From the NCBI GenBank assembly GCA_013359445.1, contig JABWBV010000002.1, forward strand, positions 1 to 45,883: a stretch of DNA of 45,883 nucleotides, written 5' to 3'. Position 1 is the stretch's first letter. The number at the start of each line of letters is the position of its first letter. Both the position numbers and the translations under genes were made by a program. A model generated the notes under the pieces. It was not told the DNA's origin and did not search any database. It saw nothing but the letters and a program-made list of their open reading frames with translations. Of this stretch, positions 9,007-12,099 are shown in pieces. Source of the DNA: Anaerolineales bacterium (GTDB lineage Bacteria > Chloroflexota > Anaerolineae > Anaerolineales > JABWBV01).

Positions 9007-10380
9007 TTACGAATGATACGAAGGTGTGGCATTCAAGCAGGATTTTACCGCGTGAAGAAGGTTTTCGTCTTGTTCGTCTAAAACGGTTCGCGGATCGAAT
9101 ACGACTTGATCGTTTTCGACACGGGCGATGAGGGGCGGGGTGGCTTTGCGGAGGGTGGAGAGGAATCGTTGGGGGGAGGGGACTTTGAGGGCAAGGAGGG
9201 TGGTGAGGAGGGTTTCGCCGGGGAGACTGCCACCGCCGATGGTGGATTCACCGGAGATCAGTTCGCCCGTCCCGAGGGCGTCGCGCCAGGTTTGCGCGCG
9301 GGTGCGGATCGCGTCCGGGGTCAGGCTGATCATCCGCCAGATGGGGATTTCGCGTGCGGCTTCGCCTTTCAAATAGTGGAGCAGGGTGGCGGAGAGGGCG
9401 GCGTAGGTGAGTTTGTCGGCGCGGAGGGCGCGGGCGAGGGGGTGTTTTTTGAGTTTGGCGACTAAATCGGCGCGCCCGGCGATGATGCCTGCCTGGGGGC
9501 CGCCGAGGAGTTTGTCGCCGGAGAAGGTGACGAGGTCTACGCCCGCGGCGAGGGATTCTTGGACGGTGGGTTCGTGGGTGAGCGTCGCTCCGCTTACAAG
9601 CGCGGTGTCGAGGAAGGTGCCGGAGCCGAGGTCTTCGACGTAGGGGAGGTGGTGGGCGTGGGCGAGGGTGGCGAGTTCGGCGCGGGTGGGTTCGGTGTGG
9701 AAGCCGAGGATGCGGAAGTTGGATTGGTGGGCGGAGAGGAGGAGGGCGATGGGTTGTTCGGCGAGGGCGGTTTCGTAGTCGCGGAGGTGGACGCGGTTCG
9801 TCGCGCCGATTTCGACGAGTTTGGCCCCGGATTGGGCCATCACGTCGGGGATGCGGAACCCGCCGCCGATTTCGACGAGTTGGGTGCGGGAGATGAGGAC
9901 TCGGCGACGTTTGGCGAGGGCGGAGAGGACAAGCATGACCGCGGCGGCGTTGTTGTTGACGACGAGGGCGGCCTCGGCCCCGGTGAGGCGTTTGAGCAGG
10001 TCTTCGGCGTGGTCGTAGCGGGAGCCGCGTTGGCCTTTGGGGAGGTCGTATTCGAGGTTGGTGTAGCCGAGCGCGGCGGTTTGCATGGCCTGGATGGCGG
10101 CGCGGCTGAGGGGGGCGCGGCCCAAGTTGGTGTGGATGATGACGCCGGTGGCGTTGATGACGGGTTGGAGGGTGGGGGTTGTCCAGGTGTGGAGGAGGTG
10201 GGTCGCGCGGGCGATCAAAGCATCGGGATCGGGGGCCTCGCCGCCAGAGGTTTGGAGGCGGGTGCGGGTTTCGTCGAGGGTGGCGCGGAGGGCGTCGGTG
10301 GTGAGGGGGCGTCCGAATTCGAGGAGGAGGGGTTCGGAGAGGGTGAGGAGGCGGTCTATGGAGGGGAGATTTCGGAGCAT
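9007..10380 (-). CDS. selA: L-seryl-tRNA(Sec) selenium transferase
   Basis: SelA is a PLP enzyme that converts seryl-tRNA(Sec) to selenocysteinyl-tRNA(Sec) using selenophosphate. The 457-residue protein carries the family start L-R-N-L-P-S-I-D-R-L-L, then G-V-I-I-H-T-N-L-G-R-A-P-L-S. The PLP-binding Lys290 sits in F-S-G-D-K-L-L-G-G-P-Q. I chose ATG 10380, which begins right at the conserved N-terminus. An in-frame TTG at 10413 would add 11 residues (M-A-I-N-L-P-P-P-N-L-P), overlapping the end of the upstream gene; neither has a clear Shine-Dalgarno. selB, selD, tRNA-Sec and any recognisable selenoprotein are absent from the window, although this gene implies that they exist in the genome. Some SelA-like proteins have other roles. 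Confidence 0.9.
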   Translation of the reverse strand: MLRNLPSIDRLLTLSEPLLLEFGRPLTTDALRATLDETRTRLQTSGGEAPDPDALIARATHLLHTWTTPTLQPVINATGVIIHTNLGRAPLSRAAIQAMQTAALGYTNLEYDLPKGQRGSRYDHAEDLLKRLTGAEAALVVNNNAAAVMLVLSALAKRRRVLISRTQLVEIGGGFRIPDVMAQSGAKLVEIGATNRVHLRDYETALAEQPIALLLSAHQSNFRILGFHTEPTRAELATLAHAHHLPYVEDLGSGTFLDTALVSGATLTHEPTVQESLAAGVDLVTFSGDKLLGGPQAGIIAGRADLVAKLKKHPLARALRADKLTYAALSATLLHYLKGEAAREIPIWRMISLTPDAIRTRAQTWRDALGTGELISGESTIGGGSLPGETLLTTLLALKVPSPQRFLSTLRKATPPLIARVENDQVVFDPRTVLDEQDENLLHAVKSCLNATPSYHS

Positions 10381-10403
10381 AGGAAGGTTAGGAGGAGGAA
10401 GGT

Positions 10404-10835
10404 TTATCGCCAAATCAGGATGGCGCGTTTTCGATTCATTTCCCAGGCTTGTTCAAAGGGCGCGCGAGGGGAAGATTTGCGGCCAAATATTGGATCGAGA
10501 TAATCCACCATATCTTCGTGGATATTTTCAAGCACAACGGCATGATTTACCCACAACGCATGAAGGGGGTATAAATTGAGGAGGGCGATGGGGTAAATTC
10601 CTTCCGAAAGCCAGGCTTGCAGTTTTTGCCAGGGGACATCACGTAATTCTTCTGCGGACAAATTGTATTGCCGCGCGCAAGCGACCACTTCACTTGCACG
10701 TGTCCCTTGTTGGGTGGTTTTACAACATAAGCGTAACATGGATTCGTCAGATTCAATTCCCCAATGGAAAAGCACCATTCGTAGACAGGCGACTGTACAA
10801 GAAACACGCGTTTCTTGTGGGAAAAAAGTTAACAC
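10404..10835 (-). CDS. small C39-like papain-fold cysteine protease
   Basis: This 143-residue protein keeps the elements of a C39-type protease. Gln7 lies six residues before the likely nucleophile Cys13, in C-T-V-A-C-L-R-M, which aligns with the C-G-x-A-C-L-x-M of C39 peptidases. His98 lies in N-H-A-V-V-L and Asp114-Pro115 in D-Y-L-D-P. The usual G-P after the Cys is replaced by T-V. There is no signal or membrane segment, so it would act in the cytoplasm as a stand-alone domain. It starts with GTG, whose first G is the last base of the TAG of the preceding gene, so translation is probably coupled. With the two small genes before it, it forms a compact cassette. The substrate is unknown; cleavage of one of its neighbours is possible but unproven. 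Confidence 0.7.
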   Translation of the reverse strand: MLTFFPQETRVSCTVACLRMVLFHWGIESDESMLRLCCKTTQQGTRASEVVACARQYNLSAEELRDVPWQKLQAWLSEGIYPIALLNLYPLHALWVNHAVVLENIHEDMVDYLDPIFGRKSSPRAPFEQAWEMNRKRAILIWR

Positions 10836-11176
10836 TAAACCCCCGGCAAACGTACCGATGCAAAAGCGGTTTCCAAGTTTGCCCCATTTTCTGTATTCAA
10901 GCGGTCAACATTTGCCTCAATGTCTTCCACGGTTGTCCACGCTGTGATGTGTCCAAATTCTTCGTCTACCACCAAAACCCCAACCGTGCCGACGATGCCG
11001 TAACCGGGTGAGGTGAGAACGAGTGGAACCACCCACCCAGAATGAAGAGCGGAGACCACATGCCAGGGAGAACCAATGCTAATTTGATCGCCAAGATGAT
11101 CGGCTACGAAATCTTCACCAATGCGTTGGGCGTCTTGTTGGGTAATTTGGGTAGTTTTTAATAGGGGGGTAACCAT
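10835..11176 (-). CDS. conserved small protein of unknown function (113 aa)
   Basis: The protein begins with an acidic helix (Q-D-A-Q-R-I-G-E-D-F-V-A-D-H-L). A beta-rich core follows: W-V-V-P-L-V-L-T-S-P-G-Y-G-I-V-G-T-V-G, then V-L-V-V-D-E-E-F-G-H-I-T-A-W. It ends in a helix-forming segment (V-E-D-I-E-A-N-V-D-R-L). A strand ending in V-V-D-x-x-x-G resembles PepSY-like and YrhB/Imm35-like small domains, but I cannot assign it with confidence. It starts three bases after the stop of the 52-residue gene and overlaps the start of the protease gene by one base. This tight coupling suggests a shared function, for example inhibitor, substrate or cofactor of the protease. Confidence 0.7.
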   Translation of the reverse strand: MVTPLLKTTQITQQDAQRIGEDFVADHLGDQISIGSPWHVVSALHSGWVVPLVLTSPGYGIVGTVGVLVVDEEFGHITAWTTVEDIEANVDRLNTENGANLETAFASVRLPGV

Positions 11177-11179
11177 TTT

Positions 11180-11338
11180 TTAGGCTCCAATCTCATGCTC
11201 AGAGGTAATTTCAAACTCCATATCCAATGCATTGGGATCATCAAACTCAGTGAAATCATGCGTGTCCCAAAACTCTCCCATTTCTTCGTAAGAACTGGCC
11301 TTTGAAATACTGCTGAGAGGCTTACTTTCTTCTTCCAT
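11180..11338 (-). CDS. 52-residue protein with the E-F-W-D-T-H-D motif of CopG-type antitoxins
   Basis: The frame runs from the ATG complementing 11336-11338 to TAA at 11180-11182. Residues 18-31 (Y-E-E-M-G-E-F-W-D-T-H-D-F-T) followed by E-F-D-D match the conserved N-terminal part of the CopG_antitoxin family (formerly DUF3680). In that family a ribbon-helix-helix DNA-binding segment usually follows. Here the protein ends after M-E-F-E-I-T-S-E-H-E-I-G-A, so the DNA-binding part is missing. It is very acidic. Downstream are the 113-residue protein (gap of three bases) and the C39-like protease rather than a recognisable toxin. A simple CopG antitoxin is therefore unlikely; it may be a substrate or regulatory partner of the protease. 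Confidence 0.7.
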   Translation of the reverse strand: MEEESKPLSSISKASSYEEMGEFWDTHDFTEFDDPNALDMEFEITSEHEIGA

Positions 11339-11362: not shown

Positions 11363-11713
11363 CTACCCTTGATGTTCCAACCCCAACTCCGCCGCCAACG
11401 CATAAAACCGCTTTGCCTCCTCCACCTTCCCCAACTCCTCATACGATTTCCCCATGTTGACATACAACGACGGATAAAACGCCTTCACCCGTTCGTCGTT
11501 CACGGCGTCTGCCCGGTTGAGCGCTTCCTGATTCCAACGAAAGGTCTCTTCGGGCGTGTCCTGAAAGCGGGCGACGTAATGGGCGGCGATGCAGGCTTCG
11601 TAGTCGTCGGTGGCGGAGTTCCAGGCTTGTTGGTAGAGGGCGCGGGCATCGTCGGGGCGGTGTTGGTATTCGGCTTCGGTGCCCTGGATGCAGAGTTGGA
11701 GGGCGAGACTCAC
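11363..11713 (-). CDS. tetratricopeptide-repeat protein (116 aa)
   Basis: This helical protein shows TPR-like pairs: Y-Q-H-R-P-D-D-A-R-A-L-Y-Q-Q-A-W near the start and a clear C-terminal TPR, V-N-M-G-K-S-Y-E-E-L-G-K-V-E-E-A-K-R-F-Y. Such repeats act as protein-binding scaffolds; no enzymatic role is implied. I chose GTG at 11713, which overlaps the TGA of the membrane-protein gene as GTGA and is preceded by AGAGGAG. The frame stays open for about 100 further codons upstream, but that part only reads the membrane-protein gene out of frame and is Gly/Arg/Val/His-rich, so I excluded it. It is the third gene of a coupled trio. Confidence 0.75.
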   Translation of the reverse strand: MSLALQLCIQGTEAEYQHRPDDARALYQQAWNSATDDYEACIAAHYVARFQDTPEETFRWNQEALNRADAVNDERVKAFYPSLYVNMGKSYEELGKVEEAKRFYALAAELGLEHQG

Positions 11714-12099
11714 GGCCTCCAAGCTCCTCTTTCCCTCAGCCGCAACAGCCACTCCACCAACCCCAACCCCGCGGCGATCCACAACGCGAGCGGAAACGTG
11801 ACCACGCGCCCGATCTGGAGCCAGGCCAGGATGCACCCGTACAGACCGATCCACGTCGCCTGCCGGATGATGACGGCCTGAGTAGCCGGGGCTTCGCTGG
11901 GAAAACGGCGGTTGAGAAACGCCATCACCGGCAGGGAAACCCCGGTCAGCAGGAGGAACCAGCACAAGAAAAAGAGCCACCGCGGGCCAACGGTTGGCAG
12001 GGTGTAAATCAACAGCCAACCGAGGCCCGCAAGGCCCAGGCCGCCTAACAGAATGGAGGCCGGGAGAAATTTAATGACAGGGGGAGAAGTATTTTCCAT
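11710..12099 (-). CDS. multi-pass membrane protein of unknown function (129 aa)
   Basis: Four hydrophobic segments are visible (about 10-32, 38-60, 75-95 and 100-120). Short connecting loops include F-L-N-R-R-F-P-S-E and a final R-L-R-E-R-G-A-W-R-P tail. The protein is not recognisable as a transporter or enzyme. Its ATG overlaps the TAA of the lipoprotein gene as TAATG, and its stop overlaps the GTG of the TPR gene. All three are therefore likely to be made from one mRNA and may act together at the membrane. Confidence 0.7.
   Translation of the reverse strand: MENTSPPVIKFLPASILLGGLGLAGLGWLLIYTLPTVGPRWLFFLCWFLLLTGVSLPVMAFLNRRFPSEAPATQAVIIRQATWIGLYGCILAWLQIGRVVTFPLALWIAAGLGLVEWLLRLRERGAWRP

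What the first reader, a model, noticed from the sequence alone, without database searches (positions are those of the whole stretch)
10404..11338. Three-gene cassette: FWDTHD protein, 113-residue protein and C39-like protease
Three small genes are coupled by a three-base gap and a one-base overlap. The first carries only the N-terminal FWDTHD motif of a CopG-type antitoxin family without its DNA-binding half. The last keeps the Cys13, His98 and Asp114 set of a papain-fold protease in just 143 residues. A protease with two tiny partners and no toxin could be a regulated-proteolysis or peptide-maturation module. The coupling is seen; the function is inferred.
Basis: partly seen in the sequence, partly recalled or inferred. 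Interest (0 to 1): 0.62.

Follow-up and report, generated by a model that had tools for sequence, protein, structure and literature searches.

The report
Protease–inhibitor pair resembling a toxin–antitoxin module
Two of the three genes form a portable pair, a small cysteine protease and a protein that probably blocks it, which behaves in evolution like a toxin with its antidote; the third gene is only a truncated antitoxin that happens to sit beside them.

Summary
In detail: on the minus strand a FWDTHD gene, a 113-residue gene and a 143-residue C39 protease with Cys13/His98/Asp114 are packed together. The true unit is the last two genes. Across 396 genomes of the class, the 113-family gene lies directly upstream of a C39 protease at >100 loci. 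The FWDTHD gene appears upstream at none of about 100 other loci scanned; it is a truncated CopG antitoxin without its usual BrnT toxin.

The 113-residue protein is a PepSY-type domain (confident model, nearest YpeB/YpmB, cystatin-like topology). In relatives it is fused to antitoxin domains (Phd/YefM, AF2212, DUF2281, DUF433).

Linkage is asymmetric. C39 is essentially never without its partner (at most 2/139), whereas the partner often survives without an intact protease (33/136), frequently beside protease remnants, and stays under purifying selection in the one orphan pair tested. The cassette lies between two genes that are adjacent in relatives.

Best reading: a toxin–antitoxin-like module with a C39 cysteine protease as toxin and a PepSY-fold inhibitor as antidote. 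The nearest characterised relative is the secreted Cpe1/Cpi1 toxin–immunity pair. Toxicity, inhibition and target are inferred, not shown.

The parts
10404..10835 (-). Stand-alone C39 (papain-fold) cysteine protease, 143 aa, GTG start, no secretion or transporter domain; predicted toxin/effector
   Evidence: PF03412 48 bits; model pLDDT 97.8, Z about 21 to PCAT1/ComA peptidase domains, Z 17.0 to Cpe1 toxin 9l5u; Q7/C13/H98/D114 conserved
10835..11176 (-). 113-aa PepSY-fold (cystatin-like topology) partner; predicted inhibitor/antitoxin
   Evidence: Model pLDDT 92.2, best structural matches YpeB Z 7.1 and YpmB Z 7.0; relative L096 matches PepSY over its cut-off, 7/58 relatives match PepSY; directly upstream of C39 at >100 loci
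11180..11338 (-). Truncated CopG/BrnA-type antitoxin (FWDTHD half only); not a conserved member of the module
   Evidence: PF12441 sub-threshold; full-length relatives L149 and L152 carry the C-terminal half and lie next to BrnT-like genes; no FWDTHD ORF at about 100 other pair loci
11363..11709 (-). Small TPR-repeat ORF (start uncertain) lying between the membrane-protein gene and the FWDTHD gene; absent at the corresponding place in relatives, so part of the inserted stretch
   Evidence: TPR matches; empty sites
9007..10381 (-). selA, housekeeping flank downstream of the inserted stretch
   Evidence: PF03841 E 2.1e-129; synteny in relatives
11710..12099 (-). Conserved small membrane protein, housekeeping flank upstream of the inserted stretch; adjacent to selA (about 11-52 nt) in relatives
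   Evidence: tblastn to relatives' selA loci

Best explanation
A two-gene, toxin-antitoxin-like module. Gene 1 (113 aa) makes a small PepSY-fold protein that binds and inhibits the protease made from gene 2; translational coupling (overlapping genes, inhibitor first) ensures the inhibitor is made before or with the protease. Gene 2 (143 aa) is a free C39 papain-fold cysteine protease. When the inhibitor is lost, degraded or titrated, the protease cuts one or more cellular proteins and stops growth. In relatives the inhibitor domain is fused to known antitoxin domains (Phd/YefM, AF2212, DUF2281, DUF433), which could autoregulate the operon; the window copy lacks such a domain. Shown: gene pairing, intact catalytic residues, fold assignments, antitoxin-domain fusions, asymmetric loss, purifying selection on one orphan-partner pair, insertion into a conserved gene pair. 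Inferred: inhibition, toxicity, target, and trigger.
For: (1) Pairing: 102 of 150 listed 113-family hits have C39 immediately downstream on the same strand; 37 of 39 apparently partnerless C39 loci turned out to have the partner directly upstream, and the other two have a divergent AbrB-like/PepSY-like ORF there, by eye. (2) Asymmetry: partner without intact adjacent C39 in 33/136 examined, C39 without a detectable partner in at most 2/139, Fisher p 2e-9; counting remnant cases only, 17/120 vs 2/139, p 7e-5; N- or C-terminal C39 remnants follow about 17 solitary partners, none in upstream controls. (3) Two sister species share the same C39 deletion remnant, yet the solitary partner shows dN/dS 0.044 at dS 0.37. 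(4) Fusions to Phd/YefM, AF2212, DUF2281 and DUF433; in two genomes the partner-DUF433 fusion is followed by a DUF5615-type gene. (5) PepSY-type fold; PepSY is described as a regulator/inhibitor of peptidases (PMC6393860, citing Yeats 2004). (6) C39-like proteases are proven bacterial toxins with immunity partners: Cpe1-Cpi1 cleaves GyrB/ParE (PMC12136450); its structure matches the window protease at Z 17.0. (7) Patchy, multi-copy, varied surroundings: 75/396 genomes of the class, up to 11 copies per genome; the window copy sits between genes adjacent in relatives.
Against: No experiment. The window copy of the inhibitor has no DNA-binding domain, and antitoxin fusions are found only in a minority of relatives, several below Pfam cut-offs. 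The structural matches of the 113 model are middling (Z about 7, within the range of common arrangements). Docking to the protease could not be modelled. The C39 profile was built from partnered proteases, so partnerless C39 of other clades would be under-sampled. Remnants in sister species are not all independent. Proteases are not established type II TA toxins.
Confidence: 0.6

Rival explanations
1. A regulated housekeeping or stress protease with its own inhibitor or propeptide-like chaperone (PepSY acting as foldase/regulator), not a toxin.
For: PepSY domains occur in protease propeptides and regulators (vibriolysin propeptide and YpeB among structural matches); strict pairing.
Against: Patchy distribution, up to 11 copies per genome, varied neighbours; repeated loss of the protease while the partner is kept and, in one tested pair, selected; antitoxin-domain fusions.
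Confidence: 0.2
2. An orphan toxin-immunity cassette of polymorphic (contact-dependent or T6SS) systems: the C39 domain is a spare toxin tip and the 113 protein its immunity.
For: C39-like PLCP toxins of CDI/T6SS are structurally close (9l5u, 8ssm); Tox-PLC39 was reported in Chloroflexi (PMC3482391).
Against: Order is inhibitor first, protease second, whereas in Cpe1 loci immunity genes follow the toxin (PMC12136450); protease ORFs are free-standing and begin directly after the partner with no delivery domain; fusions are to intracellular antitoxin domains.
Confidence: 0.1
3. Leader peptidase for peptide (RiPP/bacteriocin) maturation, as the first reader suggested as one option.
For: The closest C39 families are peptide-exporter peptidase domains (NHLM ABC, PCAT1, ComA).
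Against: No transporter domain, precursor peptide or modification enzyme seen to recur in the loci read; partner is a folded PepSY-type domain without an evident double-glycine leader; neighbours vary.
Confidence: 0.06
4. The three genes are a true unit in which FWDTHD is a third functional component.
For: 3-base gap to the 113 gene; same apparent operon in the window.
Against: No FWDTHD ORF at about 100 other pair loci; the closest pair locus (G116, L033) lacks it; full-length relatives pair with BrnT.
Confidence: 0.04

Closest known systems
Cpe1-Cpi1 papain-like cysteine protease toxin-immunity pair (PLoS Biol 2025, PMC12136450; PDB 9l5u) and C. rodentium CdiA-CT/CdiI (8ssm)
   Same: C39/ABC-exporter-like papain-fold protease with Cys/His/Asp triad next to a small dedicated partner gene
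   Different: Those are delivered toxin tips with T6SS/CDI domains and an immunity gene after the toxin; here the protease is free-standing, the partner comes first, is of PepSY type and is fused in relatives to antitoxin domains
Type II toxin-antitoxin modules (e.g. PIN toxins with DUF433/COG2442 or AF2212/COG2880 antitoxins; Makarova 2009, PMC2701414)
   Same: Small overlapping two-gene operon, antidote gene first, multi-copy and patchy, shares antitoxin domains
   Different: Presumed toxin is a cysteine protease rather than a nuclease, kinase or transferase
C39 peptidase domains of PCAT1/ComA/NHLM exporters (PF03412)
   Same: Fold and catalytic residues (Z about 21)
   Different: No membrane or ATPase domain and no leader-peptide partner found
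PepSY domain (PF03413; YpeB, YpmB, M4-protease propeptides)
   Same: Fold; protease-regulating role proposed for the family
   Different: Partner of a predicted cytosolic cysteine protease; most members fall below Pfam's PepSY cut-off
BrnT/CopG-antitoxin (PF04365/PF12441)
   Same: FWDTHD motif of the first gene
   Different: No toxin gene and no C-terminal half in the window

Membership tests
C39 peptidase (PF03412) | Profile match over cut-off and Cys/His/Asp triad | tested here: met
   48 bits vs 22; triad conserved in 66/67 near-complete homologues; model Z about 21 to PCAT1/ComA
PepSY (PF03413) | Profile match over curated cut-off | tested here: inconclusive
   Window protein itself below detection; one relative (L096) over cut-off 25.5/24, 7/58 relatives match at E<=0.05
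PepSY (PF03413) | Fold | tested here: inconclusive
   Top matches YpeB and YpmB, Z 7.0-7.1, pLDDT 92; Z under 8 may mean only a common arrangement
Type II toxin-antitoxin | Small two-gene operon, antitoxin upstream, overlapping or adjacent genes | tested here: met
Type II toxin-antitoxin | Toxin gene not found without antitoxin; solitary antitoxins tolerated | tested here: met
   33/136 vs at most 2/139
Type II toxin-antitoxin | Antitoxin carries a DNA-binding/autoregulatory domain | tested here: inconclusive
   Absent in the window copy; Phd/YefM, AF2212, DUF2281, DUF433 domains in some relatives
Type II toxin-antitoxin | Toxin inhibits growth; antitoxin neutralises by direct binding | not testable with these tools
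   Needs expression assay
Polymorphic toxin-immunity (CDI/T6SS PLCP) | Toxin domain attached to a delivery domain, immunity gene downstream | tested here: not met
   Free-standing ORF, partner upstream
CopG/BrnA antitoxin (PF12441) | Full-length profile match over cut-off and adjacent BrnT toxin | tested here: not met
   22 vs 28 bits, profile positions 5-41 of 79; no BrnT in the inserted stretch, unlike L149 and L152
Known defence families (PADLOC) | Match to any PADLOC model | tested here: not met
   No match for seven proteins

The most novel reading that the evidence does not exclude
A new class of intracellular toxin-antitoxin system in which the toxin is a C39 cysteine protease and the antitoxin is a PepSY (cystatin-topology) inhibitor domain that has been combined with at least four known antitoxin domain types, expanded mainly in one class of Chloroflexota.
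Probability: 0.5. Interest if true: 0.8.

Novelty: new variant of a known kind. Interest (0 to 1): 0.62.

Why it matters
Established type II toxins are mostly nucleases, kinases and transferases (general knowledge); a free protease toxin held by a PepSY inhibitor would add a proteolytic mechanism and tie exporter-type C39 peptidases and secreted protease toxins (Cpe1) to intracellular TA biology. It would also give PepSY-type domains a concrete role as antidotes. I found no description of this pair in the papers searched.

Tried and rejected
Three-gene conserved cassette: rejected, no FWDTHD ORF elsewhere. Peptide-maturation cluster: no recurrent precursor or transporter seen. Polymorphic-toxin tip: no delivery domain. 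Phage or plasmid origin: no match in phages or viral contigs (close relatives only); plasmid hits of the window C39 were mostly annotated as NHLP exporter peptidases, and none for another member. PADLOC: none. Imm35, the immunity family linked to papain-like Tox-PL1, gave no Pfam match to any member and was not otherwise compared. A genome-contig scan with the 113 alignment failed (no conserved stretch); a scan with one C39 found only 4 loci. Apparent 'orphan' C39 hits in the genome-wide search were an artefact of the per-genome candidate limit and resolved to pairs. No natural 113-C39 fusion was found, so docking could not be modelled.

Full report
Observation. The three ORFs lie as described on the minus strand of a 45,883-base contig (whole contig 680 of a 7.04 Mb, 822-contig draft genome). 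The FWDTHD gene ends 3 bases before the 113-aa gene, and the 113-aa stop and the C39 GTG start share one base (TAGTG). The protease is a PF03412 member (48 bits, cut-off 22) and its closest NCBIfam model is the peptidase domain of NHLP bacteriocin exporters. The 113-aa protein had no family; FWDTHD matched PF12441 below its cut-off over the first half of the profile only.

The real unit is a gene pair. Relatives of the 113-aa protein were searched in 396 genomes of the class and C39 relatives in the same set. Of 150 listed 113-family hits, 102 have a C39 gene immediately downstream on the same strand, usually overlapping it. Of 50 C39 hits without a listed partner, 39 were fetched; 37 have the partner directly upstream when scanned locally, so the missing partners were a search-limit artefact. 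The other two have an ORF there that by eye is an AbrB-like segment followed by a divergent PepSY-like domain; the one scanned has no Pfam match. Distances between pairs correlate between partner and protease (r 0.59; best of 2000 permutations 0.15), as expected for genes that travel together. Up to 11 hits occur in one genome and three pairs lie in tandem at one locus. The family is found in 75 of 396 genomes of the class; in a sample of the rest of the phylum only three genomes matched, two of them weakly. Records holding close relatives of one member are mostly labelled Anaerolineae/Anaerolineales or Chloroflexi.

FWDTHD is a bystander. No FWDTHD-like ORF occurs in the roughly 100 other loci scanned. 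Full-length relatives (e.g. L149, 81 aa; L152) carry an extra C-terminal part and lie just downstream of BrnT-like genes (the L149 neighbour matches BrnT_toxin, 28.9 bits, below its cut-off of 34.5). The window copy is cut short and has no BrnT. In relatives of the same order the small membrane-protein gene abuts selA (about 11-52 nt apart, overlapping in one); in the window about 1.3 kb with TPR, FWDTHD, 113 and C39 lies between them. In the one same-family genome the same interval holds a DUF2283 gene, so the site may be an insertion hot spot.

What the partner is. The model is confident (pLDDT 92.2), with a helix, an antiparallel sheet and C-terminal helices; best structural matches are YpeB's C-terminal domain (Z 7.1, rmsd 3.3, 86 residues), YpmB (Z 7.0, rmsd 3.0, 63 residues), a clostridial lipoprotein (6.9) and a designed cystatin fold (6.8). 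These Z values alone are not decisive. Independently, one relative matches Pfam PepSY over its cut-off (25.5 vs 24 bits) and 7 of 58 match at E<=0.05. PepSY is described as a regulator or inhibitor of peptidases (PMC6393860).

Antitoxin connections. In relatives the domain is fused to AF2212-like (3 members, best 2.8e-10), DUF433 (2 members, 1.1e-6), Phd/YefM (2, 1.4e-5, below cut-off) and DUF2281 (3, 5e-4; the one inspected is below cut-off). DUF433 and AF2212/DUF104 are antitoxin families of PIN toxins in Makarova 2009 (PMC2701414). In the two DUF433-fused loci the next gene is of DUF5615 type (52.6 bits for the one tested); another solitary copy is followed by a PIN-domain gene, and one pair follows an Xre/HigA-type HTH gene.

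Asymmetric loss. Among examined loci, the partner lacks an intact adjacent protease in 33 of 136, whereas the protease lacks a detectable partner in at most 2 of 139 (Fisher p 2e-9; remnants only, 17/120 vs 2/139, p 7e-5). About 17 solitary partners are followed by truncated or internally deleted C39 (profile score at or above about 10; shuffled sequences 99th percentile 1.7, one maximum 9.9; no upstream control above 4.9), one by a full-length copy with Cys to Tyr. In two sister genomes (93% identical over 5 kb) the C39 remnant is identical, so the loss is shared, yet the partner shows dN/dS 0.044 at dS 0.37. A partner useful only for maturing the adjacent protease would not be expected to be kept this way; an antidote acting in trans against sibling copies would. 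Caveats: the C39 profile was built from partnered proteases; sister loci are not independent; the selection test rests on one orphan-orphan pair.

What the protease is. The model (pLDDT 97.8) matches PCAT1 and ComA peptidase domains at Z about 20-21, and two bacterial protease toxins, Cpe1 (9l5u, Z 17.0) and the Citrobacter CdiA-CT (8ssm, Z 16.8). Cpe1 is a papain-like protease related to exporter C39 domains, blocks growth by cutting GyrB and ParE and is neutralised by its immunity protein (PMC12136450; that 9l5u is this complex is inferred from its title). Unlike those, the present proteases have no delivery domain and their partner gene comes first.

Conclusion. The anatomy and evolution fit a toxin-antitoxin-like pair, C39 protease as toxin and PepSY-type protein as antidote (confidence 0.6). 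Membership in type II TA is not claimed: gene order and asymmetric loss are met, a DNA-binding domain is absent in the window copy, and toxicity and neutralisation are untested. No description of such a pair was found in the literature searched, which covers only open-licence PMC papers.

Noticed in passing
L112:4555-4947 (window genome, contig 30): A second, solitary copy of the 113 family in the same genome, with no protease remnant, preceded by a 65-aa ORF of no known family and followed by a transposase-like ORF.
   Followed up: partly
L157:721-957: In the same-family genome G396 the interval upstream of selA holds a DUF2283 gene, suggesting an insertion hot spot for small TA-like genes at this position.
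   Followed up: partly
L075: Three tandem 113-C39 pairs at one locus of G184, the third with its C39 interrupted.
   Followed up: no
L038:3070-3708 and L040:3233-3874: 113/PepSY domain fused to the DUF433 antitoxin domain and followed by a DUF5615-type gene instead of C39: possible partner swap.
   Followed up: partly
L063:4235-4774: Full-length C39 with catalytic Cys replaced by Tyr next to an intact partner.
   Followed up: no
L134: A contig filed under Lysobacterales carries a C39 gene 99% identical to that of an Anaerolineae MAG; probably a binning error.
   Followed up: no
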